Shown here in pieces: positions 1 through 29,397 of a DNA stretch of 64,000 bases; the first letter of the stretch is position 1; each line of letters begins with the position of its first letter. This stretch comes from Lineus longissimus (taxonomy: Eukaryota > Nemertea > Pilidiophora > Heteronemertea > Lineidae), in contig NC_088308.1 in assembly GCF_910592395.1 (NCBI RefSeq), positions 8,635,001-8,699,000 of the forward strand. Reading direction: 5' to 3'. A program made the position numbers and the translations under genes. The notes under the pieces were generated by a model. That model searched no databases. It was not told the origin of the DNA and worked only from the letters and a program-made list of their open reading frames with translations.

Positions 1-1
1 A

Positions 2-205
2 CTAGGTTTAGGTGCAATTATTTTAGCATCATTTATCATGTTTAAGAAACGTCCTAAAAAAGTAAGTAAAGAGCAGCGATCAGGCTTGAATCGAACTTTG
101 TTCTCTGGACAAAGTCCGAATGAAGCAGTCATGAAGGGATCAATTAACCCTCTTGTTAAACCTGTAGTTAAAGAGAAGAAATGTACTATTCCTTTAATGG
201 AATGA
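2..205 (+). CDS. C-terminal part of a membrane protein of the Polinton
   Basis: The reading frame is open from the window edge to TGA at 203-205, giving about 67 residues. It starts with a hydrophobic stretch (roughly residues 1-13, rich in L, G, A, I) followed by a very basic segment (KKRPKKVSK), as in a single-pass membrane protein with a short cytoplasmic tail. A mini-hairpin module at 93-117 is read in frame within the tail. I do not recognise the family. The N-terminus is missing. Confidence 0.6.
   Translation, partial: LGLGAIILASFIMFKKRPKKVSKEQRSGLNRTLFSGQSPNEAVMKGSINPLVKPVVKEKKCTIPLME
93..117. repeat. Mini-hairpin module pair
   Basis: GAAC-TTT-GTTC (93-103) is followed after three bases by GGAC-AAA-GTCC (107-117). 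Each is an 11-nt perfect mini-hairpin with a 3-nt loop. It lies in frame inside the partial membrane protein gene. Confidence 0.85.
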
Positions 206-220
206 TCTCATCAGGTGGTC

Positions 221-340
221 AAGCTTTGCTCTCGGGACTTTGTCCTAGTCAGACTTCGTCCTGAGAGCTCTGCTCGAGTCGAACTTTGTTCTCTGGACCT
301 TGTCTCAGTCAGACTTCGTCTTGAGAGCAAAGCTCGATTC
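221..340. repeat. Array of about eight mini-hairpin modules
   Basis: This intergenic array alternates GAGC/GCTC-type and GGAC/GTCC-type mini-hairpins in both orientations. Perfect ones include GGAC-TTT-GTCC (234-244), GAGC-TCT-GCTC (265-275), GAAC-TTT-GTTC (281-291) and GAGC-AAA-GCTC (325-335); shorter GAC-TTC-GTC forms lie between them. The right end of the array codes for the last residues (ELCSQDEV) of the minus-strand gene that ends at 309. Confidence 0.88.
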
Positions 341-1259
341 TTAACTCTAAAGAAACCTCTGTTCCTCTGAAATTAACTAGCTTACCATTCTCATCAGTGA
401 TTTCGAATTTTATGTGATTAGTACACTTATTTATCGTTTTCTTACAATTCGGTTCGTATCGCTGCATTTTTATTTGGTCACCATCTTCTACAGGTATGAT
501 GCAGAAAATGTTAGATGGTTTATTGTTGTAGAGGGTCTTAGCTTTGTCAACCAAATTAGCTTGCAGGAATAGATATTTCCTGTAAAAGTTGAGTGGTCTT
601 GTGGAGTAGTATTTTCCTTTCTTGGTGAATTTAGTTTGCTTAAAGCCAAACCACTCATTCACCACTGTGAGCTGTTTTTCTATCACCTCTCTTATGGTTT
701 TGCTTATTTGAAAACCTTCTGTGTTTCTCTCAATCTTGATTTTTTCATTTTTATCTAACTTGTCTACTTTCAGAGGGTACTCTTTATCCTCTGTAAGTTC
801 AAGGGTTATGTAATTATTGTTATCACAGTAAATTTTCACATGGCTTATTCCAATTTCTTTTATGTATTTTTGCCATACCTCACAAAACTCACTTAAACTA
901 AAATGTCGAGAGTATGGAAATGTGTATTGAGTAATGGTGTCTTTAGTTGTGGTAGAATCATTTTCCAAATGCCGTTCGCAAATTTTCATGACTTCCTTTT
1001 CAAGTGTATCTGTTTCAAGTCCAGGAGCAAATAATGTCCTACACCATAATTTTTTATCTAAGGGCTCATGTTTTGTAATTCTGGTTATTTCGACTAGAAA
1101 TGAGAAAATCCTTACTCCCTCTGGTAGAAAATCACCTGTCCACCATGAATTGTAAAAGGTTATCGATTTCAAAGTAATGGATTTTATGTCTAATTGGTCT
1201 GTTAAGTAGTACTCAAATTTGGCTTCATTACATTCTTGTTCATTGATTATGAAGTCCAT
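309..1259 (-). CDS. Polinton protein with penton-like C-terminal motif
   Basis: This is a 316-residue protein of unknown role. Near its C-terminus it has a beta-rich pattern (KFEITDENGKLVNFRG followed by alternating hydrophobics) that closely resembles the end of the penton-like protein at 9817-10584. It may therefore be a second minor-capsid or spike-base protein. This rests on visual similarity of one motif only. The last eight residues come from a mini-hairpin array, so the original stop codon was probably displaced. The start is preceded, on the coding strand, by TAAATAGAAATG, the same context as at the polymerase and the major capsid genes. Confidence 0.6.
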   Translation of the reverse strand: MDFIINEQECNEAKFEYYLTDQLDIKSITLKSITFYNSWWTGDFLPEGVRIFSFLVEITRITKHEPLDKKLWCRTLFAPGLETDTLEKEVMKICERHLENDSTTTKDTITQYTFPYSRHFSLSEFCEVWQKYIKEIGISHVKIYCDNNNYITLELTEDKEYPLKVDKLDKNEKIKIERNTEGFQISKTIREVIEKQLTVVNEWFGFKQTKFTKKGKYYSTRPLNFYRKYLFLQANLVDKAKTLYNNKPSNIFCIIPVEDGDQIKMQRYEPNCKKTINKCTNHIKFEITDENGKLVNFRGTEVSLELRIELCSQDEV

Positions 1260-1315
1260 TTCTATTTAATTCAAGAGATTTATTGAATTTAATAAATTTT
1301 AATCTAATAAATAGA

Positions 1316-4300
1316 ATGACTGATAAGAATCAGAAAATACTTTGCACTACATGTGACAAGTACATATCCTACAATAATATGGCTATTCACAGGAGAACCA
1401 AAGGTCACTTAAGTAAATTAAATCCGGATTATGTCCCTATTGCTCAACCCCGAGCCCAATCACTGATCCCTAAAACTATGGATAAGAAACTTGCATTTGA
1501 GGAAAATGAGCTAGATGGCATAAAGAAAGTGAGTGGAATAGAAATAGTAAAACAATTTGGCAAGCCTGTAGTCACCATTAGTTTGAAGATTGACAGAGAA
1601 GCTAAACAAGTGTATGAATACAGAGATAAATTAGAGGAGGTATTATTTCAACTCAATGATTACCATCACAAAATTAGCATATCAGTATTTGCTCAGTTTG
1701 ATCGTCAGGGTGAAAGTGTAACACACCCCATACAGTCTCCAATGGAAAGCATAATTTCAAGGAACCAGGCAATTTATGCCATAACCAACCAGTTAAACTA
1801 CATTAAGACACAGATTGAGGAAAGGTACTTTCAAGGTTCTGGACTTACTTTAAATAAAATAGAGTCTTGTAACATGACCATCTGTTCTTACAAGAGGTGT
1901 AAAGGTGGTCATTACACTAAATTACCATTTAAAACAAAAGCAGTAATAAATGTGGAATCAAATGACAATAAATGTTTTCTCTGGTCTTTATTGGCCGCTA
2001 AATATCTGAAAGAAAATCCAGAGACGGACTTTGTCCTGAGAGCAGAGCTCGAGAGTACATTCAATATCACTACCGATATGCTACAAATGACTTCGTCACG
2101 AGAACAGAGTTCGAAAACTACTGATATCAAAATCGAGCTCTGCTCTCAGTACGGAGTACAAATCAAATCATTTCCTGTATGTATTCAAAAGGATATCCCT
2201 AAGATAGAGAGTGATAATAATCTCAAAACTAATGTGTTCAAGTTAGAGAACGAATCGGCTAAGAGCACCTGTGAGGCAAAACTAGAACCTCTCTACCTGT
2301 CCAAGAATTATGATGATGATGATGTCATCGATCTGTTGTATTTCAAGGACCATTTCATGTACATAAGAGACATCAATCTTTTCTTCAGGACACTAGCTCA
2401 TAGAGTGTATCTTTGCAGGAGATGCATGAATTACTTTTACAGGAAGTCAACACTAGATAAACATAAAAAGAAATGTGGAGAACACGATTACTGTAAGATT
2501 ACTTTGCCTCCACCTAACAGTAAATGGTCACAAATTAAATTTGAAAAACACTCATTCAAAAATAGAGTTCCGTTTGTGATATATGCTGATTTCGAAGCGA
2601 TAAGCACAACAGTCAATGATAACTCGAGCTCTGCTCTCACAACTCAGACAGATACCACTGTTACCACTAAAAAACTTTTTAAACAAAATGCATCAGCTGT
2701 TGGTGTTTATGTTCACTCAGACTACACACACCTTTACAGTAGCCAGTATGTGTCTCACAGGGGTGCTGATGTTGTAGATGTGTTCTGTAATTGGTTAATC
2801 AGGATGGAAGAACAATTCTCTAATTTATTGAACTGTAACTTTCCTCTAACAATGACAGATGAAGACTCGAGCTCTGCTCTCAGGACGAAGTCCGACTGGC
2901 ATAAATATCAATTAGAAACACATTGTTACTATTGTAATCAACCTTTGGGATATGACAAGGTCAAGGATCATGATCACTACTGTGGTAGATATCGAGGTGC
3001 TGCTCACAACTCGTGTAATTTGAATGAAAAGAAAGCTATGTTTGTTCCAGTGTTTTTTCACAATCTCAGTAATTACGATTCTCACTTATTTATTAAAGAA
3101 TTAATGAATAAGCTACCAAAGTACAAGAAACTGAAAATACTTGCCAAAACATCAGAGGAATACATTTCATTTCAGTTCGGTTGTTTCAGGTTTTTGGACT
3201 CGTACAGATTCCTGCAGTCCAGTTTAGACAACATAACCAAATCAATGTTGGATGATGATTTTAAAATTACCAGACAGCTGTTCCCAAATACCACTGACTT
3301 TAAGATATTGAGGAAGAAGGGTTCAGTACCTTACTCTTTTTACACATCACATGAAAGCTACAATGTTACTTACCTAGAAAAGTCTATGTTTTTTGACGAA
3401 TTGAAAAATGAAATGGCACCTGATTCTGCCTATGATGAGGCTAAGGTAATATGGGATCATTTCAAGATCAGTAATCACGGTGAGTTCATTGACCTCTACC
3501 TCAAAACTGATGTGATCCTTTTAGCTGATTTATTTGAGAAATTCAGGGATGTCAATTTGAACTACTTTCAGATAGATCCCTGTCACTGTTACTCGGCACC
3601 AGGCCTAACCTGGCAAGCTGGTTTGAAGTACACAGGAATAAATCTAGAACTACTGACTGATACCAACATCTTACTTACTTTTGAGAAAGCAATACGAGGT
3701 GGAATTTCGGGTGTTATGGGAACAAGACATGTCAAGGCAGATGAACACCACAAACTACTCTACATAGACGCAAATAATCTCTACGGCTGGTCCATGATGG
3801 AACCTCAACCCTATGGTAGTTTTGAAATGATAGATATTGATCCACTCGAGCTATGCTCTCAGGACAAAGTCCGACTAGGACAAAGTCCCGAGAGCAAAGC
3901 TCGACTTAACATGAATGTTATCAGTAAAGAGCTGATTATGGCAATTCCAAGTGATAGTGAAGTAGGCTACTTCTTAGAGGTTGATTTGGAGTATCCAGGA
4001 AATATTAAATTTAAGTCAAGGAACTTTCCATTCTGTCCCGAATCTCTCTTTATTGAAGATGATGAATTAAGTCCTTACCAGAGAGAGTTACTGGGTGATG
4101 ATAAAAGATCAAATGTAGAGAAACTAATACTAACACAAAAGGATAAAACTAATTACATAGTGCATTACAGAATGCTACAATTTTACCTAAAGCACGGAAT
4201 GGTACTTAAGAGGGTTCATTCAGTGATAAGCTTTAAACAATCAAAGTGGTTAGCACCATACATTGATTTTAACACTAAAAGACGTATGGATTCTAAGACT

Positions 4301-5155
4301 GATTTTGAGAAAGACTATTTTAAGCTCATGAATAATGCGTTCTACGGAAAGACTTGTGAGAATGTAAGGAACAGGGTTGAAATTGAATTTGTATCGGACG
4401 GGGAGAGAGCCAGGAATGTAATGGCCAATCCCAGGTTTTCATCGATATGCGTATTTGACGAACATAATGCTGCTATTAGCATGAGGAAAACATCAATGAA
4501 ATTCAACAAACCAATCTACATAGGAGCTTCAGTACTTGAATTGTCTAAATTATTAATGTATGAATTCTATTATGAAGTTCTTCAACCGTACTTTGGTGAG
4601 AAAAATATTGAACTGCTGTATCTAGATACAGATTCCTTTGTACTTAACATTAATACTGATGACTTAAATAAAGACTTAAAGGAGTTGAGACACTATTTTG
4701 ACTTCAGTAATTATCCAAAAGATCATACACTCTATGATACCAGTAAGAAGAAGGTACCAGGCTACTTTAAGGATGAGCTAGGAGGAGTAGAGATGACTGA
4801 ATTCATTGCCCTGAGAAGTAAGATGTACGCTTACAGGACCAAGACTATGTCTGGAGAGCAAGGCTCGACAAAAGATTACGATTCTAAGAAATTGAAGGGT
4901 ATTGCCAAGAATGTAGTAAGGAGAAATATCTCATTTGATGACTATGTTGATTGTCTTGAAAAGAGTAGGTCATTTTACCACAAGATGAGACACTTAAGAT
5001 CAGATAAACACCAAATCTATTTGGAAGAAGTTGGCAAAAAAAGCCTCAGTCCTTTTGATGACAAGAGGTTCATACTTGAAGATGGAATAAGCACCTTACC
5101 ATTTGGAATGTATTACGAAGGCTACATAGATTACAGCGATTCAAACTTCGCTTGA
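1316..5155 (+). CDS. polB: Protein-primed family B DNA polymerase
   Basis: This enzyme would replicate the element from a protein primer bound at the terminal repeats. The ATG at 1316 is chosen because the longer frame opens with a TTG. The product has 1,279 residues. There is a C2H2 finger near residues 10-31 (CTTC...HRRTKGH) and another cysteine/histidine cluster around 360-390. Exonuclease motifs are YADFEA (D425), NLSNYDSHLF (D588) and YLKTDVILLADLF. Polymerase motifs are DANNLYGW (D818), NNAFYGK (Y1010) and LDTDS (D1104, D1106). The family-typical DHDH...RGAAHNSCN zinc site precedes the second exonuclease motif. All catalytic residues are present. Seven mini-hairpin insertions lie in frame, between conserved blocks rather than inside them. 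The stop codon abuts another array. Confidence 0.96.
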   Translation: MTDKNQKILCTTCDKYISYNNMAIHRRTKGHLSKLNPDYVPIAQPRAQSLIPKTMDKKLAFEENELDGIKKVSGIEIVKQFGKPVVTISLKIDREAKQVYEYRDKLEEVLFQLNDYHHKISISVFAQFDRQGESVTHPIQSPMESIISRNQAIYAITNQLNYIKTQIEERYFQGSGLTLNKIESCNMTICSYKRCKGGHYTKLPFKTKAVINVESNDNKCFLWSLLAAKYLKENPETDFVLRAELESTFNITTDMLQMTSSREQSSKTTDIKIELCSQYGVQIKSFPVCIQKDIPKIESDNNLKTNVFKLENESAKSTCEAKLEPLYLSKNYDDDDVIDLLYFKDHFMYIRDINLFFRTLAHRVYLCRRCMNYFYRKSTLDKHKKKCGEHDYCKITLPPPNSKWSQIKFEKHSFKNRVPFVIYADFEAISTTVNDNSSSALTTQTDTTVTTKKLFKQNASAVGVYVHSDYTHLYSSQYVSHRGADVVDVFCNWLIRMEEQFSNLLNCNFPLTMTDEDSSSALRTKSDWHKYQLETHCYYCNQPLGYDKVKDHDHYCGRYRGAAHNSCNLNEKKAMFVPVFFHNLSNYDSHLFIKELMNKLPKYKKLKILAKTSEEYISFQFGCFRFLDSYRFLQSSLDNITKSMLDDDFKITRQLFPNTTDFKILRKKGSVPYSFYTSHESYNVTYLEKSMFFDELKNEMAPDSAYDEAKVIWDHFKISNHGEFIDLYLKTDVILLADLFEKFRDVNLNYFQIDPCHCYSAPGLTWQAGLKYTGINLELLTDTNILLTFEKAIRGGISGVMGTRHVKADEHHKLLYIDANNLYGWSMMEPQPYGSFEMIDIDPLELCSQDKVRLGQSPESKARLNMNVISKELIMAIPSDSEVGYFLEVDLEYPGNIKFKSRNFPFCPESLFIEDDELSPYQRELLGDDKRSNVEKLILTQKDKTNYIVHYRMLQFYLKHGMVLKRVHSVISFKQSKWLAPYIDFNTKRRMDSKTDFEKDYFKLMNNAFYGKTCENVRNRVEIEFVSDGERARNVMANPRFSSICVFDEHNAAISMRKTSMKFNKPIYIGASVLELSKLLMYEFYYEVLQPYFGEKNIELLYLDTDSFVLNINTDDLNKDLKELRHYFDFSNYPKDHTLYDTSKKKVPGYFKDELGGVEMTEFIALRSKMYAYRTKTMSGEQGSTKDYDSKKLKGIAKNVVRRNISFDDYVDCLEKSRSFYHKMRHLRSDKHQIYLEEVGKKSLSPFDDKRFILEDGISTLPFGMYYEGYIDYSDSNFA
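2026..2159. repeat. Three in-frame hairpin insertions in the polymerase
   Basis: Site one has GGAC-TTT-GTCC (2026-2036) plus GAGC-AGA-GCTC (2039-2049). Site two has GAC-TTC-GTC (2089-2097) plus GAAC-AGA-GTTC (2102-2112). Site three has GAGC-TCT-GCTC (2135-2145) plus GTAC-GGA-GTAC (2149-2159). They are read as protein in three different frames and orientations without breaking the polymerase frame. Confidence 0.88.
2626..2636. repeat. In-frame mini-hairpin, single module
   Basis: GAGC-TCT-GCTC lies inside the polymerase gene just after the first exonuclease motif and is read as SSSAL. The expected GGAC/GTCC partner is not recognisable downstream. Confidence 0.8.
2869..2893. repeat. In-frame double mini-hairpin
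   Basis: GAGC-TCT-GCTC (2869-2879) and GGAC-GAA-GTCC (2883-2893) are separated by TCA and read in the polymerase as SSSALRTKS. This is the clearest copy of the basic double unit. Confidence 0.9.
3848..3902. repeat. Four-hairpin mirror array inside the polymerase
   Basis: The order is GAGC-TAT-GCTC, GGAC-AAA-GTCC, GGAC-AAA-GTCC, GAGC-AAA-GCTC, i.e. two double units head to head. It is read in frame (ELCSQDKV then GQSPESKAR) between the DANNLYGW and NNAFYGK polymerase motifs. It adds about 20 residues to the palm/fingers region. Confidence 0.9.
4856..4866. repeat. In-frame mini-hairpin near polymerase C-terminus
   Basis: GAGC-AAG-GCTC is read as EQGS after the DTDS motif. No second module is visible next to it. 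Confidence 0.65.
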
Positions 5156-5158
5156 GTC

Positions 5159-5332
5159 GGACTACGTCCAGAGAACAAAGTTAGATTAAACTAATGAATA
5201 GGGTGGTGCTGATGGTAGTGTTACTTGGTGAAATTCATCCCTAACACCGAAGTCATGATAATAGTGATAGTGATACACCACATTAGGATTAGGACGTAGT
5301 CCGGTTCCGACTTCGTCTTGAGAGCATAGCTC
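5159..5332. repeat. Hairpin modules between polymerase and next gene
   Basis: GGAC-TAC-GTCC (5159-5169) with an eroded GAAC-AAA-GTTA follows the polymerase stop by three bases. GGAC-GTA-GTCC (5292-5302), GAC-TTC-GTC (5309-5317) and GAGC-ATA-GCTC (5322-5332) form a second group just beyond the 3' end of the convergent minus-strand gene. Confidence 0.85.
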
Positions 5333-5346
5333 GAGTCCTGTTTGAT
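5186..5346 (-). other. Possible small ORF or frameshifted tail carrying PSAP
   Basis: On the minus strand a frame stays open from a hairpin module (read ELCSQDEV) to TAA at 5186-5188 and ends in LPSAPPYSLV. It overlaps, in another frame, the end of the gene that stops at 5347, and it has no clear ATG. It could be a lost C-terminal extension of that gene or chance. PSAP is the core of some late-domain budding motifs; the link is only suggestive. Confidence 0.25.
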
Positions 5347-6006
5347 TTACTGAACTTTTAGTTTTTCTAGCATCTCTGTCTGTGCTAGTTTTTTTCCTTC
5401 TTCTAAAAAAGTCTTCTTTAAAGACTCTACATCAACAGCTGAACTTGCCTCCCTTTGTTTTTTCCTAATGGCATTTTTCATCGAAATGTATTTCTCCTTC
5501 TCCTTGAGAATCAAAGTAAACTCATCTGTAGATATGTGAGAATCGGTTAAGGCTTTACTAACCAAATCATTGATTGTGTTCAGTTTTGAAATTGCCAACA
5601 TTCTGATATTCTCATGCTTTTCAATTTTCCTTAGAATATTCTTTTTCTCCCAGCCTAAGGCTGATGAAATAATGGCACTACCTATTGTTACGCCACCCAA
5701 AGCTAAGCCTATCGGTGCCGTGATGACACCAGCTAGAGCGGAAACACCAACAGATCCGGCTGCTACGCTAGTTAAATTAAGGAAGTGGCTAATGCCAGTA
5801 ATTACGCTAAATGCTTTTTTGTACTTTGAAAATATCTTTCTTCTAAATTCAATCTCGCTTTCTAAGAAACTCTTAACCTCACATATTTGTTGTAGTCTGA
5901 AAGCCTGAGGGTTACTTTCTGTATGCTTTTCAGACCTTTCATAGTTTAATTTACTTTCAGAGTTTAAATTACTTAAATCTGGATAAACCTTATTGTCTCC
6001 ATCCAT
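5347..6006 (-). CDS. Polinton membrane protein with glycine-rich hydrophobic core
   Basis: The 219-residue product has a charged N-terminal third. Residues about 68-117 form a long hydrophobic stretch with many small residues (SVAAGSVGVSALAG, LALGGVTIGSAIISSALG). After that comes a basic, helical C-terminal half (EKKNILRKIEKHENI...). One or two membrane passes or a membrane-inserting hairpin are plausible. I know of no assigned function. The ATG directly follows TAATTA, and the TAA stop of the upstream minus-strand gene lies only four bases before it, so the two are probably co-expressed. Confidence 0.8.
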   Translation of the reverse strand: MDGDNKVYPDLSNLNSESKLNYERSEKHTESNPQAFRLQQICEVKSFLESEIEFRRKIFSKYKKAFSVITGISHFLNLTSVAAGSVGVSALAGVITAPIGLALGGVTIGSAIISSALGWEKKNILRKIEKHENIRMLAISKLNTINDLVSKALTDSHISTDEFTLILKEKEKYISMKNAIRKKQREASSAVDVESLKKTFLEEGKKLAQTEMLEKLKVQ

Positions 6007-6010
6007 TTAA

Positions 6011-6280
6011 TTAGTGGGAATAACTAGAATCAGTTGTTCTGTCATTTCTAGTGTTTAGTGTTGATCCTACAGACACTACAGGTTTTTGAAGTACATTAAA
6101 TTTTAAAGGTTTTTCTGTCCCAACAGGTTTTTCTGTCCCAGCAGGCACAGCAGGTTTTAAAGGTTTTTCGGGACCAGACTCCAACTTTGACTCTACTTCT
6201 GCCTCTAATTCTCTATGAAATCGTTCTAATCTTTCTTTCCAATTACGTGGTCGTTTTGTGTAACCCCAAGTTCTATTCAT
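6011..6280 (-). CDS. Small basic protein with PEKPLKP-type repeats
   Basis: This 89-residue protein starts MNRTWGYTKRPRNWKERL and contains a proline/lysine/glutamate repeat region (EKPLKP, TEKPVG, TEKPLK). It is likely disordered. The start context is AATTAAATG and it sits head-to-tail between two other minus-strand Polinton genes, which supports it being real. Function unknown; a virion core or scaffold role would be a guess. Confidence 0.65.
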   Translation of the reverse strand: MNRTWGYTKRPRNWKERLERFHRELEAEVESKLESGPEKPLKPAVPAGTEKPVGTEKPLKFNVLQKPVVSVGSTLNTRNDRTTDSSYSH

Positions 6281-6299
6281 TTAATTAGGTAAAATAAAA

Positions 6300-7445
6300 T
6301 CAATTCACTGCAAAGAGTAAATTTCTTTCAAGTCTATTATTAAACTTAATCATCTCGTTTATGATTTCTGTCTGACTACATATGTTAATGTTCTGGTTCA
6401 TTCTCATGTTATTATTTAAATTCGATAATCTATCAAGCAGAATCATATTTTCATCACGAAGATAATCCCCGAAATGCTGTGATATCACTATTTTCCAATT
6501 TGGTATTACATCCTGGTCTCGAAAGACAAACCAGTTTTCACTTCTCATTTTTACCATGAAATCCATTGACCTATCCAATTGATCCTTAAATAGTGTGTAG
6601 TCTACTTTAGCACTCTTCTGTCTGTTTTGTGTTTTAGACATTGGTCTAATGTTAAACCAAGCAAAGCACAGTTCAGGTTTATCTTTGAATTCCTTGATTG
6701 GTAAGACATGATCCAACTCTTCTTCTACTATTCGAACTCTGTTCTCGGGACTTTGTCCTATTGGAGATAGACTCCTCTGGTACTCTAACAACTGTGAGAA
6801 GAAACTGTCTGTACATCCTAGATTGAATGATGAATTACCGGTACACTCTCCCTTAGAAATGCGGTTTAGACCAACTCTAATTTTGTGTCTGTCTCTATTA
6901 CCATTTTGGTCAAGGTAATCCTTTTTGTAATATGAATTAAAACATGATCTGCAATTACCTCTATTTCCGTCTTTACCAAATTCACCATCACTTAGTAATT
7001 TAACTTCTCCACATTTACCACATTTCTTGGTTTTACTTGAACCACATTCTTTACAGTAATCAAGTAGTTTATTACGCCTGTTCTTTCCAAATTCACTTTC
7101 AAGTTTTGTTACATCGCACTTAACACAATAAATTGTAGGTTGATTTTCCATGTTTTGATTCATCATATTATTCTGATTTATCATATTTTGATTTTCCATG
7201 TTTTGATTTTCCATGTTTTGATTTAAGATAAACTGATTTATCATATTTTGATTTAACATGATCTGATTTATCAGATTTTGATTTAACATATTATTTTGAT
7301 GCAAATAATACAAAAACTTCTGAATATTCTGATTCATCATATTATCATGATTCATCATATTATTCTGATTCATCATATTATTCTGATTCATCATACCATT
7401 TTGATTCATCATACCATTTTGATTATCAAATATTGCTCCATCCAT
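6300..7445 (-). CDS. HNH nuclease-like protein with zinc ribbons and MNQN repeats
   Basis: The 381-residue product has three parts. Residues about 10-100 are a low-complexity tract of MMNQN, MENQN and MINQN repeats. Residues about 105-170 contain paired CxxC motifs (CVKC, CKEC, CGKC, CRSC), as in zinc ribbons that accompany recombination or restriction nucleases. From about residue 243 the pattern ELDHVLPI, then CFAWFNIRPM and NRQKSAK, fits an HNH nuclease core with His at about 247 and a distal Asn/Lys. A double hairpin (6734-6758) lies in frame just before the HNH motif. A nuclease is not a core Polinton gene. It may aid integration, recombination or exclusion of rivals; this is inference. 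Confidence 0.72.
   Translation of the reverse strand: MDGAIFDNQNGMMNQNGMMNQNNMMNQNNMMNHDNMMNQNIQKFLYYLHQNNMLNQNLINQIMLNQNMINQFILNQNMENQNMENQNMINQNNMMNQNMENQPTIYCVKCDVTKLESEFGKNRRNKLLDYCKECGSSKTKKCGKCGEVKLLSDGEFGKDGNRGNCRSCFNSYYKKDYLDQNGNRDRHKIRVGLNRISKGECTGNSSFNLGCTDSFFSQLLEYQRSLSPIGQSPENRVRIVEEELDHVLPIKEFKDKPELCFAWFNIRPMSKTQNRQKSAKVDYTLFKDQLDRSMDFMVKMRSENWFVFRDQDVIPNWKIVISQHFGDYLRDENMILLDRLSNLNNNMRMNQNINICSQTEIINEMIKFNNRLERNLLFAVN
6734..6758. repeat. In-frame double mini-hairpin in the HNH gene
   Basis: GAAC-TCT-GTTC (6734-6744) and GGAC-TTT-GTCC (6748-6758). The first stem differs from the usual GAGC/GCTC at both pairing positions, so pairing is kept. Read on the gene strand as IGQSPENRVR. 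Confidence 0.87.
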
Positions 7446-7533
7446 TTCTTTCTTTATTTAGTAGGACATTTTTTTTTTAAATTACGTTTTTCGAACTTGT
7501 TCTTGTGACTTAAGTCACTTTAGAGACTTTATT

Positions 7534-8685
7534 TCATTTCAATGATTTGATATCAGAAACTGGTAACCATTCATTGAACTTATCACTGTAACCCTTCCAC
7601 TTCACTAATCCGTATTTCTTGCCTTTACTGGTCTTGTACCTTAGGATTTTCTCGATCTTGTACTCTAGCTGGTCAGGATTAGGAACATAGCTCAATTCCT
7701 CTTCATAGAAATATCCTTGAATTTCTTCTTTGTGGTAATCCTCAAGCTTGTAGACGATAGGGTGAGTAAATATGATCTGTTTGATTTGGAACACCTCCTC
7801 AGTGTAGTTGGGCATGTAACCTTTACCGAAAATGGACTTGTACTTTGAAATTCTTACACTGTCACCTACTTTGTACTTTGGATCACCAAATGTCTCTTTG
7901 AGGTGAAGACCGTAAAGATTGTACCACACTGTTCCTTCGTTTTCCATCTTTCTGGCGTCTACAGGTTTCATACCTATTGATGAGTGAAATGTGTTATTGT
8001 AGCCGCTGACCAGGTCATCCAGAACGTCAATCCACTTGTCAGTCTCCTTAGCGGTGAAATAACGCCACATTTTTTCTTTAAGGGTTCTATTGAATCTCTC
8101 TACTACTGCTGCCTTCTTATCAGATTTTGTGGAGAACCATTCTATGTCATTTTCTGTTAAGAGTTCCTTGAAGTGTTTGTTGTAAAATTCTTTACCGTCA
8201 TCAAACTGGATTTTCGTTGGTTTTGCTTCTCTGAAAATCAATTTGAATGCATCTCTGATTTCTTCTCCCCTCTTACTCTTAACTGCTAGAGCCCAAGAAA
8301 AACGACTAAATAGATCTATGACTGTTAAAATGAATCTTAAACCCTTATTCTGTTTCTCAAATTTTTGCATGTCAACCAGATCTGCTTGCCACTGTTGATC
8401 GATGTACGATACCATTGTCTTCCTGAAGGTGAATTTCTTAATGGCCGGTTTGTGTAGTTGGTGAGTTGGTAGTGTTTCTAGAAATTCTTTCACTTCTTTT
8501 TTTTTAATAAGTTTTCCTGAGCGGGACTTTGTCCCTAACAACGAAGTTGTGCTCTGCTCTCGTGACGAAGTCATATCTTCCTTGACCTGTTTCCAGATTT
8601 TACTCAAAGAACTGTAAGCCACGGGACTCTTGGGGTTGTAGTACAAATCCCTTAGATACTGCTGTGTGTCATCCTTTACATTCAT
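7534..8685 (-). CDS. int: Retrovirus-type DDE integrase with chromodomain
   Basis: This enzyme would insert the element DNA into chromosomes. The 383-residue product has the catalytic triad D102 (WQADLVD), D162 (FDDGKEF) and E196 (VVERFNR), and a C-terminal chromodomain at about 342-383 (KYGLVKWKGYSDKFNEWLP) that would read histone marks. An N-terminal HHCC finger is not obvious. Residues about 38-58 derive from a mini-hairpin array in frame. The start codon is the mirror image of that of the ATPase, only four bases apart. Confidence 0.95.
   Translation of the reverse strand: MNVKDDTQQYLRDLYYNPKSPVAYSSLSKIWKQVKEDMTSSREQSTTSLLGTKSRSGKLIKKKEVKEFLETLPTHQLHKPAIKKFTFRKTMVSYIDQQWQADLVDMQKFEKQNKGLRFILTVIDLFSRFSWALAVKSKRGEEIRDAFKLIFREAKPTKIQFDDGKEFYNKHFKELLTENDIEWFSTKSDKKAAVVERFNRTLKEKMWRYFTAKETDKWIDVLDDLVSGYNNTFHSSIGMKPVDARKMENEGTVWYNLYGLHLKETFGDPKYKVGDSVRISKYKSIFGKGYMPNYTEEVFQIKQIIFTHPIVYKLEDYHKEEIQGYFYEEELSYVPNPDQLEYKIEKILRYKTSKGKKYGLVKWKGYSDKFNEWLPVSDIKSLK
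8524..8573. repeat. In-frame hairpin array in the integrase N-terminus
   Basis: GGAC-TTT-GTCC (8524-8534), CAAC-GAA-GTTG (8539-8549), an eroded GCTC module, and TGAC-GAA-GTCA (8563-8573). The CAAC/GTTG and TGAC/GTCA stems differ from the common forms on both arms yet still pair. Confidence 0.87.
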
Positions 8686-8692
8686 TTAAATG
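8683..8692. promoter_or_regulatory. Palindromic bidirectional start CATTTAAATG
   Basis: The integrase ATG (minus) and the ATPase ATG (plus) are the two arms of one 10-bp palindrome with TTAA between. Each gene thus has TTAAATG at its start. Similar AATTAAATG or TAAATAGAAATG contexts occur at the starts ending at 1259, 6006, 6280, 9794, 10,878 and 12,248, and at 1316. The pattern recalls the TAAATG of poxvirus late promoters. Confidence 0.55.
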
Positions 8693-9310
8693 AGTGAAGT
8701 ATTTATTTACGAGCCACACAATATGTTAATTTCTGGTGTTACCAATTGTGGTAAGACATATTTTGCCCTTGACCTCTTAGAAAAGGAGTATCGGCACAAG
8801 TTCCAGAACATAGTCATTTTCTGTCCAACATATTTCAACAATAAGACATATGAAAGGAAATGGATTTACCAAGACAAGAACGTCTACATAGTTAATCCCG
8901 AAGCTGTGGCCAGTAATTTGGACCTTGTGCTTCAGTTTGCTACTCTGACCTTTGCTGGTTCTAACACATTATTCCTCATTGATGACTGTGCTAATTTGAG
9001 AGACACAAAAAAGAAGGTGTCCGAGTTATGTAATCTTGCCTTTTCCGGCAGGCACTACAATCTCACTGTTTGGTTACTAGTTCAGAAGTACAATTCAGTT
9101 GTTAAGGACTACAGAGAGAACATAAGAATTTTAGTATTATTTTTTAATAAGGATGAATCAGCCATGAAAGATGCCTTAGAAGAAAACAGTGTTATTCCTA
9201 AGGAGAAAAGACAGTACTACATAGAAGAACTTAAGATGAAAAAAGGATCAAAACTGATCATTAGACTACAACATCCATTTGGATTTACTCTTTCACATCA
9301 AAAATCTTAG
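8690..9310 (+). CDS. A32/FtsK-type genome-packaging ATPase
   Basis: This 206-residue P-loop ATPase would drive DNA into the capsid. Walker A is GVTNCGKT (residues 16-23) and Walker B is LFLIDD (94-99). The length and the short N-terminal lead before the P-loop are typical for the Polinton/adenovirus-like packaging family. The frame ends just before a hairpin module pair. Confidence 0.92.
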   Translation: MSEVFIYEPHNMLISGVTNCGKTYFALDLLEKEYRHKFQNIVIFCPTYFNNKTYERKWIYQDKNVYIVNPEAVASNLDLVLQFATLTFAGSNTLFLIDDCANLRDTKKKVSELCNLAFSGRHYNLTVWLLVQKYNSVVKDYRENIRILVLFFNKDESAMKDALEENSVIPKEKRQYYIEELKMKKGSKLIIRLQHPFGFTLSHQKS

Positions 9311-9324
9311 TCCCGCTTCTCATC

Positions 9325-9349
9325 GAGCTATGCTCTCAGGACTGTGTCC
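9325..9349. repeat. Double mini-hairpin after the ATPase
   Basis: GAGC-TAT-GCTC (9325-9335) and GGAC-TGT-GTCC (9339-9349). It sits between the convergent 3' ends of the ATPase and the next minus-strand gene and overlaps the last codons of the latter. Confidence 0.87.
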
Positions 9350-9794
9350 GATCAGTTGTCTTAGTCTTTCTAACCCTAGTAAAATAATAAATTATTAACC
9401 CTAAACCACTAAGTCCTAGGATAATCCATAGGTACTCGTATTTCTTCATTTCATCACTAGGTTGGTAGTAATCACTTAATTGTGGTCGCTGAGGTAGTAC
9501 AATAGTTCTTTCTGGATGTAAATGATTGTAAACAGTAAGTGCTGAATCAGTATTGTTAAAATCAATAGAAGCGTCTCTTTCTCTCTTTAATTCAAGATTA
9601 ACGAAGTCAATGGTACTTTTCCTATGCTCATCCCATTCTGTGGAGGCCTTCTGTAATTGCTCCTGAGCCAAATCATGTCTTTTCACTTCAGTCTCATAGC
9701 CATTCTTGTCTAGTTTTTTAAAAAGGTAACCGGATCCAGTGAATGCTAATCCATTGATTATTGCAGATCCAAATAACATGCCAATGCCAGCCAT
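9336..9794 (-). CDS. Polinton protein with two terminal hydrophobic segments
   Basis: This 152-residue protein has a glycine-rich hydrophobic N-terminus (residues 1-24, MAGIGMLFGSAIINGLAF) and a clear membrane segment near residues 121-140 (LWIILGLSGLGLIIYYF), followed by a basic tail. The middle is charged and helical. It may be a virion membrane protein or membrane-active capsid component. Family not recognised. The start context is AATTAAATG. Confidence 0.75.
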   Translation of the reverse strand: MAGIGMLFGSAIINGLAFTGSGYLFKKLDKNGYETEVKRHDLAQEQLQKASTEWDEHRKSTIDFVNLELKRERDASIDFNNTDSALTVYNHLHPERTIVLPQRPQLSDYYQPSDEMKKYEYLWIILGLSGLGLIIYYFTRVRKTKTTDRTQS

Positions 9795-9816
9795 TTAATT
9801 CCAATGAATTTTAATT

Positions 9817-10584
9817 TCAATGATGTGTCCCTGAGAGCATAGCTCGAGTTAATACCAATTGGTACTGTACATTATGACCATTAAGATCGATGATTTCACC
9901 TTTTTCATCAGTTAAGCGAATATTCAGCTTATTGAATCTTGGTTTACAGGGAATTGCTATTGGTTTCTCAAATGTGTATGCTATTAAATCCCCAAAATTA
10001 GCTTCCTTTATTGGTCTTGTGGTTAGCACATCAGATGCTTCACCATTACTTAATACACTATTAGATTCGATTATGTCACAGTGAAAAACAAAATGGTTAA
10101 TTGGTCTAAAATTGATGGGTTTCTCGCTTACAACATCATCCTTACTTTTATTGTCTAAAGGGTAAGGCCATTCTGATTTCATGCCAAATAATTCATTACT
10201 TTTACCAATAAAATAGATCTGATAATGCGCCTCATTTTTTCTCTTTAGGAAATGTAAGATGGCCTTACCTGTTGGTTCTTCAAGGTCAAATCTGACAGCA
10301 CCTCTACTCATACTATTTTCTTTCAACTTATCCGCAAATACTTTTGAAAAGCTCTGTAGGTCATAGAGACCATCTGGTAGCGTAATCTCTGCCACATCAA
10401 ACCCCTTAACTTTGATTCGGTTATTCTCCCTGGCTGCACTTATGTTGTAGAATGTACAAGGTATTACTGCAAAAGTTAAAGTGATGCTACATGCATCCTG
10501 AATTTCAGTCTTGAGATTGACTGTTAAATCACTTGAACTCTGATCTGGATAGTCACTTGAATCTATGTTCATTACAGTAACCAT
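9817..10584 (-). CDS. Penton-like minor capsid protein
   Basis: This 255-residue, beta-rich protein lies two genes from the major capsid candidate. It has the G-x-Y segment (LPDGLYDLQSFSKVF) and the C-terminal pattern LNIRLTDEKGEIIDLNG seen in single-jelly-roll penton proteins of Polintons and adintoviruses, which would cap the capsid five-fold vertices. The assignment rests on these patterns plus position. A hairpin module lies just past the stop codon. Confidence 0.7.
   Translation of the reverse strand: MVTVMNIDSSDYPDQSSSDLTVNLKTEIQDACSITLTFAVIPCTFYNISAARENNRIKVKGFDVAEITLPDGLYDLQSFSKVFADKLKENSMSRGAVRFDLEEPTGKAILHFLKRKNEAHYQIYFIGKSNELFGMKSEWPYPLDNKSKDDVVSEKPINFRPINHFVFHCDIIESNSVLSNGEASDVLTTRPIKEANFGDLIAYTFEKPIAIPCKPRFNKLNIRLTDEKGEIIDLNGHNVQYQLVLTRAMLSGTHH
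9835..9845. repeat. Mini-hairpin next to the penton-like stop
   Basis: GAGC-ATA-GCTC near the 3' end of the penton-like gene. It is preceded by TGTCCC, a remnant of a second module. Confidence 0.75.
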
Positions 10585-10641
10585 TTACTTAAGCAAATTT
10601 TCGTTTTCAAATTTACCTTTTATCAAATAAGTAAATTATTC

Positions 10642-10878
10642 TTACTTCATAATATTTCTGGGTAGGATTCCTTGATCGTAAAGGTACTCTAATGTTCCAT
10701 TACTAATAGCTACAGTTCCTCCCAGTTTAAGAATTTCCTCTAGGTTGGCCTGACTTGGGGGACCAATATTGATTCTCAAGAACCTTTTCAGTAACATAGA
10801 GTAACCAATTGTTGTTGATGCCAACAGTAAACTTTGATACAGTGTATTTATGATATCTTTCTTTCCTGGTGTATCCAT
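10642..10878 (-). CDS. Small membrane protein between capsid genes
   Basis: This 78-residue product starts MDTPGKKDI and has a hydrophobic stretch around residues 14-32 (LYQSLLLASTTIGYSMLL), then a basic turn and a second weakly hydrophobic half. It sits head-to-tail between major capsid and penton-like genes, with AATTAAATG at the start. Function unknown. Confidence 0.65.
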   Translation of the reverse strand: MDTPGKKDIINTLYQSLLLASTTIGYSMLLKRFLRINIGPPSQANLEEILKLGGTVAISNGTLEYLYDQGILPRNIMK

Positions 10879-10924
10879 TTAATTACTTAGAAAATCACTA
10901 GTAAAACTCATTTATCTAGTATTC

Positions 10925-11007
10925 AGTGCTGGAGTGAACTTTTGTTCTTGCAACACCTCAGTGTTGGAGCGAACATTGTTCTTGCAGCACCTCAGTGCTG
11001 GAGTGAA
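10925..11007. repeat. Two and a half tandem 52-bp hairpin repeats at the capsid gene end
   Basis: The unit has an outer stem (GTGCTG or GTGTTG paired with CAGCAC or CAACAC) around an inner GAAC/GTTC stem with a 3- to 4-nt loop. The third, partial copy supplies the last codons (SLQH) and stop of the capsid gene. It differs from the usual modules but shares the GAAC-NNN-GTTC core. Confidence 0.8.
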
Positions 11008-12248
11008 GCAATCTGAGAATTCTGGATGTTAACCTGGGCGTCAGAAACCACGAATATGTGCATTTTGTATGGTCCCTTTCCAGATTTCTTTGTAATAGAT
11101 AATTGAATACCATCTTTTGTGTTCTGGAGCTTCTTTCCTGATCCGTGAAGACGATTATCCTCAGAAGTTCTCAGGTCCAACCATAAATCATAGTGATTAG
11201 AATCACCATAGTATTTTTCCATGGTCATGTTACAGTCATGAGTTTTCTTCAAATCTTCAGACATAAATTGTTTCTTGATCTCCTCCCATTGATCCATCAT
11301 TCTCATTCCTTCTGGGAACACCTGATTGGCAACACCCTCTATTGTGATCTGCACTTTACTTATGTTAGGGTTTTCAAACTTCTCTGAATCTCTAGCTCCA
11401 TCTACATAGTCAGACACAAATAGTAATAATAATCCTTTAATAGACATTCTTGGAAAGTTGATGTTCTCATTAATTAGTGTTTCATTAGCAGTAACATTGA
11501 CTGTCTTAAAATGGTCTACCCAATCATAAAATATTGAGAATCCAGAGTTGTACTTGTTACTCAATTGACTAGCAATCATTTTGTTGGCTACGGTATCATA
11601 TTCAAAACAAATATTCTCTAGTTTGTAGCCCATACTTGCTGTGGTTGCGGTAACTATGATCTCTTCCTTTGGTGCTAAAGTTATTTCAATAATCACATCT
11701 TCTTGAATTGGAAACTTGTAAAATGGAGCATGATGATGGAATAGTTCAAAATCTAATGGTATTTTGTACTTCTTGTCAAACACTTTCTTTAAAGTCTTTT
11801 CATTAGCTGTTTCTCCAGTGACATCAGCTTCAGCGACTCCTGATCTTAATTCTCTAAGATTTTTTGACTGAATACCCTGAAAAACTCTATCATTTCTTTC
11901 TTCTTCTGTAAACCACAGATCTTTAAATGTAGAATAATGACTGTATTCGTCAAGGTCAAATATCTGCTCTGTTCCCCACTTAACCACCATCTTTGAGATT
12001 AGGTTTCTACCAAGATTATTTACAACACTATTTTTAGAATTACCAGAAATGGTTACATCAGCAGACAGATAAAGAGATTTAGGTACAAAGAATGTATTCT
12101 CTCGCAATGCCGGTATTCTAACATACAGTGTTTCTTTGGGGTTAGCAGATGATGGGTTATGAGTAATGATATGATGCTGCCTCTCAGCTTTTAAACCAAG
12201 TGGAATCTTATGTGCCCTTTCGGTATTTAATAAATATCCTGTTGCCAT
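10992..12248 (-). CDS. mcp: Candidate double-jelly-roll major capsid protein
   Basis: At 418 residues this is the largest structural gene and has the size and beta-rich make-up of Polinton/adintovirus hexon-type proteins. Features include VRIPALRENTFFVPKSLYL near residue 55, an IPLDFELFHHHAPFYKFP segment near 165 and KMHIFVVSDAQVNIQ near the end. The family is known to form a hexagonal capsid of trimers; here that is inferred from size, position next to the penton-like gene and overall pattern. The start context is TAAATAGAAAATG. The C-terminus is coded by a repeat. Confidence 0.75.
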   Translation of the reverse strand: MATGYLLNTERAHKIPLGLKAERQHHIITHNPSSANPKETLYVRIPALRENTFFVPKSLYLSADVTISGNSKNSVVNNLGRNLISKMVVKWGTEQIFDLDEYSHYSTFKDLWFTEEERNDRVFQGIQSKNLRELRSGVAEADVTGETANEKTLKKVFDKKYKIPLDFELFHHHAPFYKFPIQEDVIIEITLAPKEEIIVTATTASMGYKLENICFEYDTVANKMIASQLSNKYNSGFSIFYDWVDHFKTVNVTANETLINENINFPRMSIKGLLLLFVSDYVDGARDSEKFENPNISKVQITIEGVANQVFPEGMRMMDQWEEIKKQFMSEDLKKTHDCNMTMEKYYGDSNHYDLWLDLRTSEDNRLHGSGKKLQNTKDGIQLSITKKSGKGPYKMHIFVVSDAQVNIQNSQIASLQH

Positions 12249-12472
12249 TTTCTATTTATTTACTAGTAAAATTATGTACATGCAGTGAACAGTGCCAACA
12301 TCATATATCAGGTAAAATGCACGGAAAAAAGCTATTGACGTGTACTTTCTGTTGGAATACAGTAAGTCATGATTACATTAACCCATTGAACTCTAGTATT
12401 CCCTTACCATTTCACTGCAACGCTTCACTGACCATTTCATTGCAACGCTTCACTGGGAATCTAATGAATGAT
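12249..12472. other. Non-coding flank with a 25-bp tandem repeat
   Basis: No convincing gene lies here. Two copies of a 25-bp unit (12,406-12,430 and 12,431-12,455) differ at one base. The segment could be the inner part of the Polinton terminal repeat, but that cannot be tested without the left end. Confidence 0.6.
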
Positions 12473-26169: not shown

Positions 26170-26927
26170 GTAAGCAGGTAACCTTATCAGTTGCTGTTAG
26201 AGCACCACTGACCGTAGTGATAGGTTCTCATAGTGCATATGCCATGCATTTTAAAACTGGTACTATGGTACAATGCATTAGGAGTAATCTAACTGCTTGT
26301 CGAACGGCAATGAAAATCGGCATTTCATGAACCGCAAGATGAGAAATGGCGAAATAAAGCAAGATGAGTAATCATTGTTACCTGACCCTTGATTTTCTGC
26401 TTCACTGGATTATGGCAGTTACCACTTCCGATGCTGCCGTCAACATCTCCATTTCACGCAAATGAGGCCGAAAACAATACAAAGGCCACTGTAAGCAACT
26501 GCATGTCCAAGCAGAAAGAAAAAAACAAAAATCCTGAAATGTTCTTTGAAACAATAATTTTGCCCGAGATCGGGTTGGAAAAGGAGTCGAACTGCATCAG
26601 TCACCTTTAGCTCGGGTGCATTTAAGCACTCTTGCAAACCAGGTACAGGTGGCATTTTGAAGAAGCCACGTTGAACATCAACTTATTTCACTTCAGATTC
26701 TGGTCTGGTCTGGTCGGGTTTGGTTTGGTCCCGTGTAAATGGCCCTATCGTGTAATCACTGGTTTGGTTGCAACACGAGAAAATGATTGAACGAGGTTTT
26801 CGTTCAGAAGATTACATGCAGTGGTGATCTAACGATACAATTGGACGATTCGTAAGTCTTTCGAAAACCGTCCATCCGAAGATTTCTTCTCACGTCTAAC
26901 TGATAAAGAGTTCGTATCAACGTAACA

Positions 26928-28639: not shown

Positions 28640-29397
28640 GTAAGCAGGTAACCTTATCAGTTGCTGTTAGAGCACCACTGACTGTAGTGATAGGTTCTCA
28701 TAGTGCATATGCCATGCATTTTAAAACTGGTACTATGGTACAATGCATTAGGAGTAATCTAACTGCTTGTCGAACGGCAATGAAAATCGGCATTTCATGA
28801 ACCGCAAGATGAGAAATGGCGAAATAAAGCAAGATGAGTAATCATTGTTACCTGACCCTTGATTTTCTGCTTCACTGGATTATGGCAGTTACCACTTCCG
28901 ATGCTGCCGTCAACATCTCCATTTCACGCAAATGAGGCCGAAAACAATACAAAGGCCACTGTAAGCAACTGCATGTCCAAGCAGAAAGAAAAAAACAAAA
29001 ATCCTGAAATGTTCTTTGAAACAATAATTTTGCCCGAGATCGGGTTGGAAAAGGAGTCGAACTGCATCAGTCACCTTTAGCTCGGGTGCATTTAAGCACT
29101 CTTGCAAACCAGGTACAGGTGGCATTTTGAAGAAGCCACGTTGAACATCAACTTATTTCACTTCAGATTCTGGTCTGGTCTGGTCGGGTTTGGTTTGGTC
29201 CCGTGTAAATGGCCCTATCGTGTAATCACTGGTTTGGTTGCAACACGAGAAAATGATTGAACGAGGTTTTCGTTCAGAAGATTACATGCAGTGGTGATCT
29301 AACGATACAATTGGACGATTCGTAAGTCTTTCGAAAACCGTCCATCCGAAGATTTCTTCTCACGTCTAACTGATAAAGAGTTCGTATCAACGTAACA

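What the first reader, a model, noticed from the sequence alone, without database searches (positions are those of the whole stretch)
93..9845. Short double-hairpin modules inserted in frame across a Polinton
At least 15 sites in this element carry 11-nt mini-hairpins of two kinds, GAGC-NNN-GCTC and GGAC-NNN-GTCC, usually paired with a 3-nt spacer and in either orientation. They lie inside the polymerase (seven sites), integrase, HNH gene and a membrane protein gene, and never break the frame. The same module is read as SSSAL, ELCSQ or SREQS depending on frame and strand. None was seen in the host part of the window. Known parallels are Rickettsia palindromic elements and the double-hairpin elements of fungal mitochondria; I know of none described for Polintons. 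They could be a tiny parasite of the transposon, or a structure the element uses.
Basis: partly seen in the sequence, partly recalled or inferred. Interest (0 to 1): 0.92.

Follow-up and report, generated by a model that had tools for sequence, protein, structure and literature searches.

The report
Thirty-base hairpin hitchhikers in a Polinton
A virus-like jumping gene in an animal genome, probably a ribbon worm, is itself peppered with 30-base hairpin inserts that appear to duplicate three bases of their landing site and, being ten codons long, sit inside its protein genes without breaking them.

Summary
The Polinton (window 1 to about 12250) carries 17 copies of one 25-nt double hairpin, GAGC-NNN-GCTC, TCN, GGAC-NNN-GTCC, plus five weaker or partial copies. 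The other 52 kb give nothing better than E 0.2. Each copy reads as a 27-nt body with a 3-nt direct repeat NNT, 30 bp in all. The two variable repeat letters match at 26 of 34 places versus 14.6 by permutation (p 2e-5); T precedes the body at 17 of 17 sites. Against eight polymerase relatives, the window protein is longer by 31, 10, 24 and 10 residues where 3, 1, 2 and 1 modules lie; 209 control segments are longer by at most 2. So these are insertions, and ten codons explains the intact frames. Of 240 listed homologues only a Lineus longissimus integrase has module peptides, so the host is probably a nemertean.

Best explanation: a non-autonomous micro-mobile element copying itself within Polinton DNA at staggered breaks. 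The Polinton's endonuclease VII-like protein is a candidate mobiliser. Modules also crowd at gene 3' ends. Closest kind: mitochondrial hairpin elements. The host genome could not be searched.

The parts
92..121 (+). double-hairpin module, direct repeat AAT/AAT, in frame in small membrane-protein-like ORF (2..205 +, cut by the window start)
220..249 (+). module, repeat GGT/AGT, intergenic, first of four alternating units
247..276 (-). module, repeat ACT/ACT, intergenic
280..309 (+). module, repeat AGT/AGT, intergenic
307..336 (-). module, repeat AAT/ACT, encodes C-terminus and stop of the ORF 309..1265 (-)
1316..5155 (+). DNA polymerase B gene (PF03175) carrying 7 double modules and an endonuclease VII-like motif (residues 534-581)
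2022..2051 (-). module in pol, repeat TCT/TCT
2084..2113 (-). module in pol, repeat TTT/TTG
2134..2163 (+). module in pol, repeat AAT/AAT
2625..2647 (+). partial module (first hairpin) in pol
   Evidence: 18.1 bits; no clean length excess
2868..2897 (+). module in pol, repeat ACT/ACT; 10 residues longer than each of 8 relatives
3847..3876 (+). module in pol, repeat ACT/ACT, first of an inverted pair
3874..3903 (-). module in pol, repeat AGT/AGT, second of an inverted pair
4838..4867 (-). module in pol, repeat TGT/GGT; 9-10 residues longer than 8 relatives
5155..5184 (-). module abutting the pol stop codon, repeat AAT/ACT
5291..5302 (+). partial module (GGAC hairpin only), intergenic
   Evidence: 9.7 bits, E 0.98; exact hairpin
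5304..5333 (-). module, intergenic between pol and ORF 5347..6006 (-), repeat ACT/AAC
6300..7445 (-). endonuclease VII-like (HNH) gene, candidate mobiliser
   Evidence: phrog_1035 endonuclease VII, E 3.9e-13; protein search found no homologue at E 0.001
6733..6762 (+). module in the endonuclease VII-like gene, repeat ATT/ATT
7492..7521 (+). degenerate module between HNH and integrase genes (model match 7492-7517), repeat TTT/TTT at period 30 read by eye
   Evidence: 15.0 bits, E 0.043; repeat read
7534..8685 (-). integrase (rve + chromodomain)
8522..8534 (+). partial module (GGAC hairpin) in integrase
   Evidence: 8.5 bits, E 2; exact hairpin
8548..8577 (+). module in integrase N-terminal linker, repeat AGT/ATC
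8690..9310 (+). A32-type packaging ATPase
9324..9353 (+). module supplying the stop codon of ORF 9336..9794 (-), 14 nt after the ATPase gene; repeat CAT/ATC (no match in register)
9827..9846 (-). partial module (GAGC hairpin) encoding part of the C-terminus of ORF 9817..10584 (-)
   Evidence: 19.4 bits, E 0.0033
10936..11007 (+). second hairpin family: tandem units about 34 nt apart, [GAAC-loop-GTTC] TTG [CARCAC-CTCA-GTGYTG], covering the stop codon of the capsid gene
   Evidence: structure read by eye
10992..12248 (-). major capsid protein candidate (Capsid_N E 0.0022, below Pfam cut-off)

Best explanation
The modules are copies of a non-autonomous micro-mobile element about 27 nt long. Each copy entered Polinton DNA at a staggered break, duplicating three bases of form NNT, for a total of 30 bp or ten codons. 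In this window it is found in the Polinton and not in the surrounding genome, so copying probably happens while the element's DNA replicates as a separate, virus-like molecule. Inferred mechanism: the double hairpin folds in single strands exposed during strand-displacement replication, a structure-cutting nuclease acts on it, and the folded fragment or its copy is joined and filled in at a staggered nick elsewhere on the element. The Polinton's own endonuclease VII-like protein is the first candidate for the cutting. Shown here: insertion relative to relatives, direct repeats, a 30-bp period, confinement in this window, maintained pairing. Inferred: mobility, the copy route, and the enzyme.
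For: Direct repeats: 26 of 34 variable letters match within sites versus permutation mean 14.6, p 2e-5 (50,000 permutations); T precedes the body at 17 of 17 sites (element T 0.342). For the 11 isolated sites it is 16 of 22 versus 8.5, p 0.0007. At period 30 the four flank letters match 49 of 68 times versus 33.2; at the other 13 periods from 24 to 37 the excess is at most 4.7 letters. Empty sites: excesses of 31, 10, 24 and 10 residues at module clusters against at most 2 in 209 control segments, over 8 relatives. Subfamilies defined by spacer and base 27 (Fisher p 0.00097) have members in different genes, such as 2088 in pol and 8549 in integrase. Pairing kept: 97.1% of 136 cells versus 89.3% shuffled, covariation 0.250 versus 0.092, both 0 of 500. 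Nothing better than E 0.2 in the flanking 52 kb. Related peptides in a Lineus longissimus integrase. Endonuclease VII-like gene, E 3.9e-13.
Against: No second copy of this Polinton and no host genome could be read, so presence/absence polymorphism is untested. Repeats are imperfect: 10 of 17 sites match at both variable letters, six at one (221, 311, 4842, 5159, 5308, 8549) and 9325 at none. The 17 modules were picked by a fixed geometry, so their uniform core length is partly selected; four partial copies exist (2625, 5291, 8522, 9827). Two of five covariation measures are weak: pairs changed on both sides 3 versus 1.7 (23 of 500 shuffles) and further pair types 5 versus 3.8 (98 of 500), and changes are shared within subfamilies. 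The 3848/3878 excess is 24, not 20, and the 2625 region is uninformative. A single module (2864-2897) is no more stable as DNA than shuffles, z 0.11 and 0.20 on the two strands. The link to endonuclease VII is by co-occurrence only.
Confidence: 0.66

Rival explanations
1. Templated repair insertions: broken Polinton DNA is rejoined by an error-prone polymerase that copies a hairpin-rich filler from elsewhere in the element, and the short direct repeats come from microhomology or fill-in, without any dedicated mobile unit.
For: Short direct repeats and copies in both orientations are also expected of templated repair. Arms 218-282 and 3841-3905 are 89% complementary over 65 nt, so a two-module piece may have been copied as one. 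Partial copies with only one hairpin exist at 2625, 5291, 8522 and 9827.
Against: The direct repeats sit at one period, 30, and T stands before the body in 17 of 17; random fillers should vary in length and end points. The 17 were however picked by core geometry, so uniform core length alone proves little.
Confidence: 0.16
2. The hairpins are 3'-end signals of the element's transcripts, as in the hairpin rule of Mimiviridae, and spread because genes need them; copies inside genes are side products.
For: Nine of 12 gene 3' ends lie within 20 nt of a module or second-family hairpin versus 1.47 expected under random placement (20,000 trials), and 0 of 11 gene 5' ends; at 40 nt it is 9 of 12 versus 2.26 and 1 of 11. 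Hairpin-forming palindromes end Mimiviridae transcripts (PMC4402537, passages).
Against: Seven double modules sit inside the polymerase, including an inverted pair folding at -20.5 kcal/mol as DNA, which would be expected to cut its own transcript. Stems are 4 bp. Three 3' ends (6011, 6300, 10642) have none near. Tolerance of insertions at gene ends explains the pattern equally well. One of the nine rests on the second hairpin family.
Confidence: 0.12
3. Ordinary conserved coding sequence or repeat peptides.
For: Ten modules lie in frame inside ORFs.
Against: The eight relatives counted lack the residues at the four informative places; modules are read in both orientations and all three phases; the same modules are also intergenic.
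Confidence: 0.02
4. Recognition or packaging sites that arose by point mutation and selection, like uptake sequences, not by insertion.
For: Both orientations, spread over 10 kb, maintained pairing.
Against: Ten-residue length excesses and direct repeats show insertion.
Confidence: 0.04

Closest known systems
Double-hairpin elements (DHEs) of fungal mitochondria and repetitive hairpin-forming elements of sponge mitochondria
   Same: Tiny units of adjacent hairpins, dispersed in copies, in a few cases inside genes (PMC2800124, sections 20 and 23; PMC10085805, passages)
   Different: Here nuclear DNA of a Polinton; flanking direct repeats present, whereas PMC2800124 reports their lack for Allomyces; 30-bp period. 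No sequence comparison with DHEs was made
GC clusters of yeast mitochondria (GC42 and kin)
   Same: Short palindromic mobile-looking units with short flanking direct repeats, AG or ACT, and constrained hairpin structure (PMC4478555, passages)
   Different: GC42 is 42 nt, GC-rich and mitochondrial with repeats of fixed sequence; here the repeat is variable NNT and the unit is 27 nt in a nuclear virus-like element
Rickettsia palindromic elements
   Same: Palindromic repeats inserted in frame in many unrelated protein genes
   Different: About 150 bp with an encoded conserved peptide (PMC10969869, passages); here 27 nt, consensus open in five of six frames
MITEs
   Same: Non-autonomous, target-site duplications
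   Different: No terminal inverted repeats seen by eye, much shorter, no donor transposon found
Hairpin-rule 3' ends of Mimiviridae and Pithovirus transcripts
   Same: Hairpins at gene 3' ends of an AT-rich virus-like genome (PMC4402537, passages)
   Different: Those are not conserved in sequence and lie at transcript ends; here one sequence family, ten of 17 double copies inside ORFs

Membership tests
Polinton/Maverick | PolB of organellar/viral type, rve integrase, A32-like ATPase, capsid proteins | tested here: met
   DNA_pol_B_2 3.9e-19, rve 3.6e-11 plus Chromo 1.2e-7, Pox_A32 6.8e-15; the capsid protein is only a sub-threshold Capsid_N match (0.0022)
Polinton/Maverick | terminal inverted repeats and short target duplication of the whole element | not tested
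   left end lies outside the window; right end not located
Mitochondrial double-hairpin elements | two adjacent hairpins per unit | tested here: met
Mitochondrial double-hairpin elements | no flanking duplications (Allomyces) | tested here: not met
   one search finds NNT repeats; for Allomyces
Mitochondrial double-hairpin elements | mitochondrial location | tested here: not met
   Polinton next to receptor ORFs (7tm_1) and a DDE_Tnp_4 transposase
Yeast GC clusters | flanked by AG or ACT | tested here: not met
   repeats are variable NNT, ACT among them
Rickettsia palindromic elements | about 150 bp, encoded conserved peptide | tested here: not met
   unit 30 bp, read in both orientations and all phases
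MITE / DNA transposon | target-site duplication | tested here: met
   10 of 17 sites match at both variable letters
MITE / DNA transposon | terminal inverted repeats matching an autonomous partner | tested here: inconclusive
   no such ends in the 27-nt body by eye; host genome not searchable

The most novel reading that the evidence does not exclude
A 27-nt, double-hairpin, frame-neutral mobile element lives only in a virus-like transposon of nemerteans and is moved by that transposon's own endonuclease VII-like nuclease, with a 3-nt NNT target duplication. It would be a parasite of a parasite near the lower size limit for a mobile element, and its ten-codon length lets it colonise essential replication and integration genes.
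Probability: 0.3. Interest if true: 0.92.

Novelty: new variant of a known kind. Interest (0 to 1): 0.8.

Why it matters
Hairpin mini-elements of mitochondria have long been argued to be mobile, with the route still debated in the papers seen. Here a nuclear, virus-like element shows a target duplication, sites empty in relatives and a resident gene resembling a structure-cutting nuclease, which makes the route testable. It also shows how an insert can be tolerated inside genes: it adds ten codons and its consensus is open in five of six frames.

Tried and rejected
Searches of viral contigs for the module: pattern 1 gave 7 hits, all one identical sequence in contigs of GC 0.53-0.57, taken as chance. 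A looser pattern gave 63 loci with one match each; of the 76 loci then held, 16 had two or more windows scoring at least 16 of 23 and none more than three, against 19 such windows in this element. The GAAC variant gave 0. Polymerase relatives with DNA: a single-sequence scan found none, an alignment scan gave L008-L009 and genome contigs gave L010-L013, all 28-34% identical; none has the module family (best 10.5 bits, E 0.59, default filters). Integrase alignment in viral contigs: none. Protein search with the HNH gene: none at E 0.001 of 1194 candidates. Rfam at E up to 1: two sub-threshold matches, SNORD29 at 11156 and mir-8 at 2089-2158 across two modules, taken as chance. Solved structures for the HNH gene: weak matches only, best E 0.073 to ribosomal protein eL37, also KDM6B. 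Considered and rejected: conserved coding sequence; point-mutation origin; a 4-nt duplication (base 27 follows the spacer subfamily, Fisher p 0.00097, which favours 27 + 3, although the fourth letter also matches in 10 of 17 against 5.6 expected). Integrase as a clean empty site: rejected, the linker is length-variable. Literature: one search found no paper with its four terms; none of the titles and abstract starts listed (20 of 43; 12 of 17; 12 of 144; 15 of 16) mentions hairpin modules in Polintons or nemertean elements. The library holds open-licence papers only, so absence in print is not shown.
Full report
What is there. Window 1 to about 12250 is part of a Polinton with GC 0.33-0.38 per 2 kb: PolB 1316..5155 (+), endonuclease VII-like HNH gene 6300..7445 (-), integrase 7534..8685 (-), A32-type ATPase 8690..9310 (+), candidate penton 9817..10584 (-) and capsid gene 10992..12248 (-), with several unknown ORFs. 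The name penton is my reading; that ORF has no Pfam or PHROG match. The rest of the window includes 11 receptor-like ORFs, one of which was scanned (7tm_1, 3.4e-20), a DDE_Tnp_4 transposase and an acyltransferase-like ORF.

Counts and chance. GAGC-NNN-GCTC occurs 12 times and GGAC-NNN-GTCC 11 times before 9900, against 0.027 and 0.032 per shuffle in 1000 dinucleotide shuffles. A scan for the geometry 11 + 3 + 11 with at least 7 of 8 pairs, keeping rows alike to the consensus, gives 17 double modules. A covariance model of the 17 cores, run over all 64 kb with filters off, finds the same 17 (33.1 to 43.4 bits, high by construction), then 9827- (19.4), 2625+ (18.1) and 7492+ (15.0). The first match outside the element is 42017 with 12.4 bits and E 0.2.

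The unit is a 30-bp insertion. Sites were aligned on the core and the flanks compared. At period 30 the four bases left of the body match those to the right at 49 of 68 letters against 33.2 by permutation; at the other 13 periods from 24 to 37 the excess over expectation is at most 4.7 letters. For the 11 modules outside arrays it is 30 of 44 against 19.1, p 5e-5. Base 27 of the body follows the spacer subfamily (T in five of five TCG modules and in 1 of 12 others; Fisher 0.00097), so the body is best read as 27 nt and the repeat as 3 nt. Its last letter is T on the left in 17 of 17 and on the right in 13 of 17. The two other letters match 26 of 34 times against 14.6, p 2e-5, and 16 of 22 against 8.5 for the isolated sites, p 0.0007. 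Ten of 17 sites match at both letters; 221, 311, 4842, 5159, 5308 and 8549 at one; 9325 at none in register. Intergenic copies 251 and 281 show the same period, so the length is probably intrinsic and not merely what the reading frame let survive.

Empty sites. The polymerase search listed the best 120 of 5467 hits; the top-scoring full-length relative is 55% identical. Fifteen were aligned with the window protein, and residues between conserved anchors were counted for the eight most similar of them. The window exceeds their median by 31 residues at the three-module cluster 2022-2163, 10 at 2868, 24 at the pair 3847-3903 (18 over the longest relative) and 10 at 4838. The single hairpin at 2625 gives 3 in a region where relatives range from 6 to 50. 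Among 209 control segments the largest excess is 2. In the integrase the linker between the ED and EVKEFL residues has 26 residues in the window; 15 of 26 aligned relatives have 7 and the other 11 have 8 to 24, so this site is consistent with insertion but not clean. The closest relative, P0121 (94% identical, filed under Bartonella sp. CL29QHWL, longest contig 1226 bases, probably contamination), begins with DGKLIK inside this linker and so looks empty but is truncated there.

A second carrier. Of 240 listed proteins (120 from each of two searches) only P0129, an uncharacterised protein of the nemertean Lineus longissimus (79% identical in the alignment), matches the module-peptide patterns: GHSPESIA, a reading of a module in this window, in the same N-terminal linker, and ELCDKVRL at its C-terminus. 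Only the protein was seen, not its DNA. It suggests a nemertean host and a module family older than this one copy.

Structure. Stems are kept: 97.1% of 136 cells pair against 89.3% in shuffles and covariation is 0.250 against 0.092, both 0 of 500; ten cells are changed on both sides against 2.5 (0 of 500). Weaker measures: three pairs changed on both sides against 1.7 (23 of 500) and five further pair types against 3.8 (98 of 500). Changes are shared within subfamilies (TCT: 93, 281, 5159; TCG with TTT loop: 221, 3878, 6734; TCG with TGAC: 2088, 8549; grouping by eye), so independent events are fewer than ten. As single-stranded DNA the module at 2864-2897 is not unusually stable (z 0.11 and 0.20 on the two strands); 6730-6762 has z -1.77; 89-121 has z -3.07 but as one different hairpin; the inverted pair 3843-3905 folds at -20.5 kcal/mol, z -8.15, and the array 215-341 at z -3.60. 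The modules adjoining one another (221/251/281/311 and 3848/3878) alternate in orientation and are separated by AGT(C) or ACT, as expected if new copies enter the NNT beside an old one, or if an inverted pair can move as one (218-282 and 3841-3905 are 89% complementary).

Genes and frames. Ten double modules lie inside ORFs, in both orientations and all three phases; three overlap ORF ends; four are intergenic. The consensus is open in five of six frames. Nine of 12 gene 3' ends lie within 20 nt of a module, counting partial copies and, for the capsid gene, the second-family array, against 1.47 for random placement in 20,000 trials, and 0 of 11 gene 5' ends; collapsing arrays leaves 9 against 1.26. 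This may be tolerance at gene ends or a 3'-end function.

Mechanism. A target duplication, dispersal of subfamilies and confinement to the element fit a micro-mobile element acting on Polinton DNA. Absence from the 52 kb beside it is hard to put down to selection alone, though recent arrival of a Polinton already loaded with modules would also explain it. The Polinton encodes an endonuclease VII-like protein (phrog_1035, 3.9e-13), and its polymerase carries a second such motif (PF02945 2.8e-4, below cut-off; phrog_423 4.2e-5). From memory, phage T4 endonuclease VII cuts branched and hairpin DNA with staggered nicks; that makes it a candidate, nothing more. The copying step, by DNA or RNA, is unknown.

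Comparison. Fungal and sponge mitochondrial hairpin elements are the nearest kind; for Allomyces the lack of flanking duplications led to an RNA-route proposal (PMC2800124, abstract and sections 20 and 23 read), whereas yeast GC clusters have AG or ACT repeats (PMC4478555, passages). Rickettsia palindromic elements share in-frame insertion but are about 150 bp (PMC10969869, passages). No listed title or abstract start reports such modules in Polintons (listings only; one search found no paper).

Limits. The host genome was never searchable, so polymorphism, copy number and confinement rest on one 64-kb window.

Noticed in passing
window 10936-11007: A second hairpin family in tandem units about 34 nt apart, [GAAC-loop-GTTC] TTG [CARCAC-CTCA-GTGYTG], with a compensated C/T change between units; it covers the stop codon of the capsid gene.
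   Followed up: partly
window 6006, 6280, 8685, 8690, 9794, 10584, 10878: Seven of 11 Polinton start codons lie in TAAATG, which recalls the late-promoter motif of poxviruses (from memory); the hexamer occurs 17 times in 1..12251 on both strands together.
   Followed up: partly
window 2915-3058 (pol residues 534-581): The polymerase carries an endonuclease VII-like motif shortly after module 2868-2897; PF02945 is also precomputed for many listed relatives.
   Followed up: partly
window 7135-7454: N-terminus of the endonuclease VII-like gene is a 15/18-nt repeat array encoding MMNQN-type repeats.
   Followed up: no
P0121: A 94% identical Polinton integrase is filed under Bartonella sp. CL29QHWL, probably contamination by animal DNA.
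   Followed up: partly
window 18570-61082: Array of 11 similar receptor-like ORFs (one scanned, 7tm_1); the copies 26907-27935 and 29377-30405 are identical in DNA, a recent duplication or an assembly artefact.
   Followed up: partly
   Followed up: no
window 12636-14282: Segment of GC about 0.51 whose translation resembles the RNase H of a tyrosine-recombinase retroelement by eye; two of its ORFs scanned, no Pfam match.
   Followed up: no
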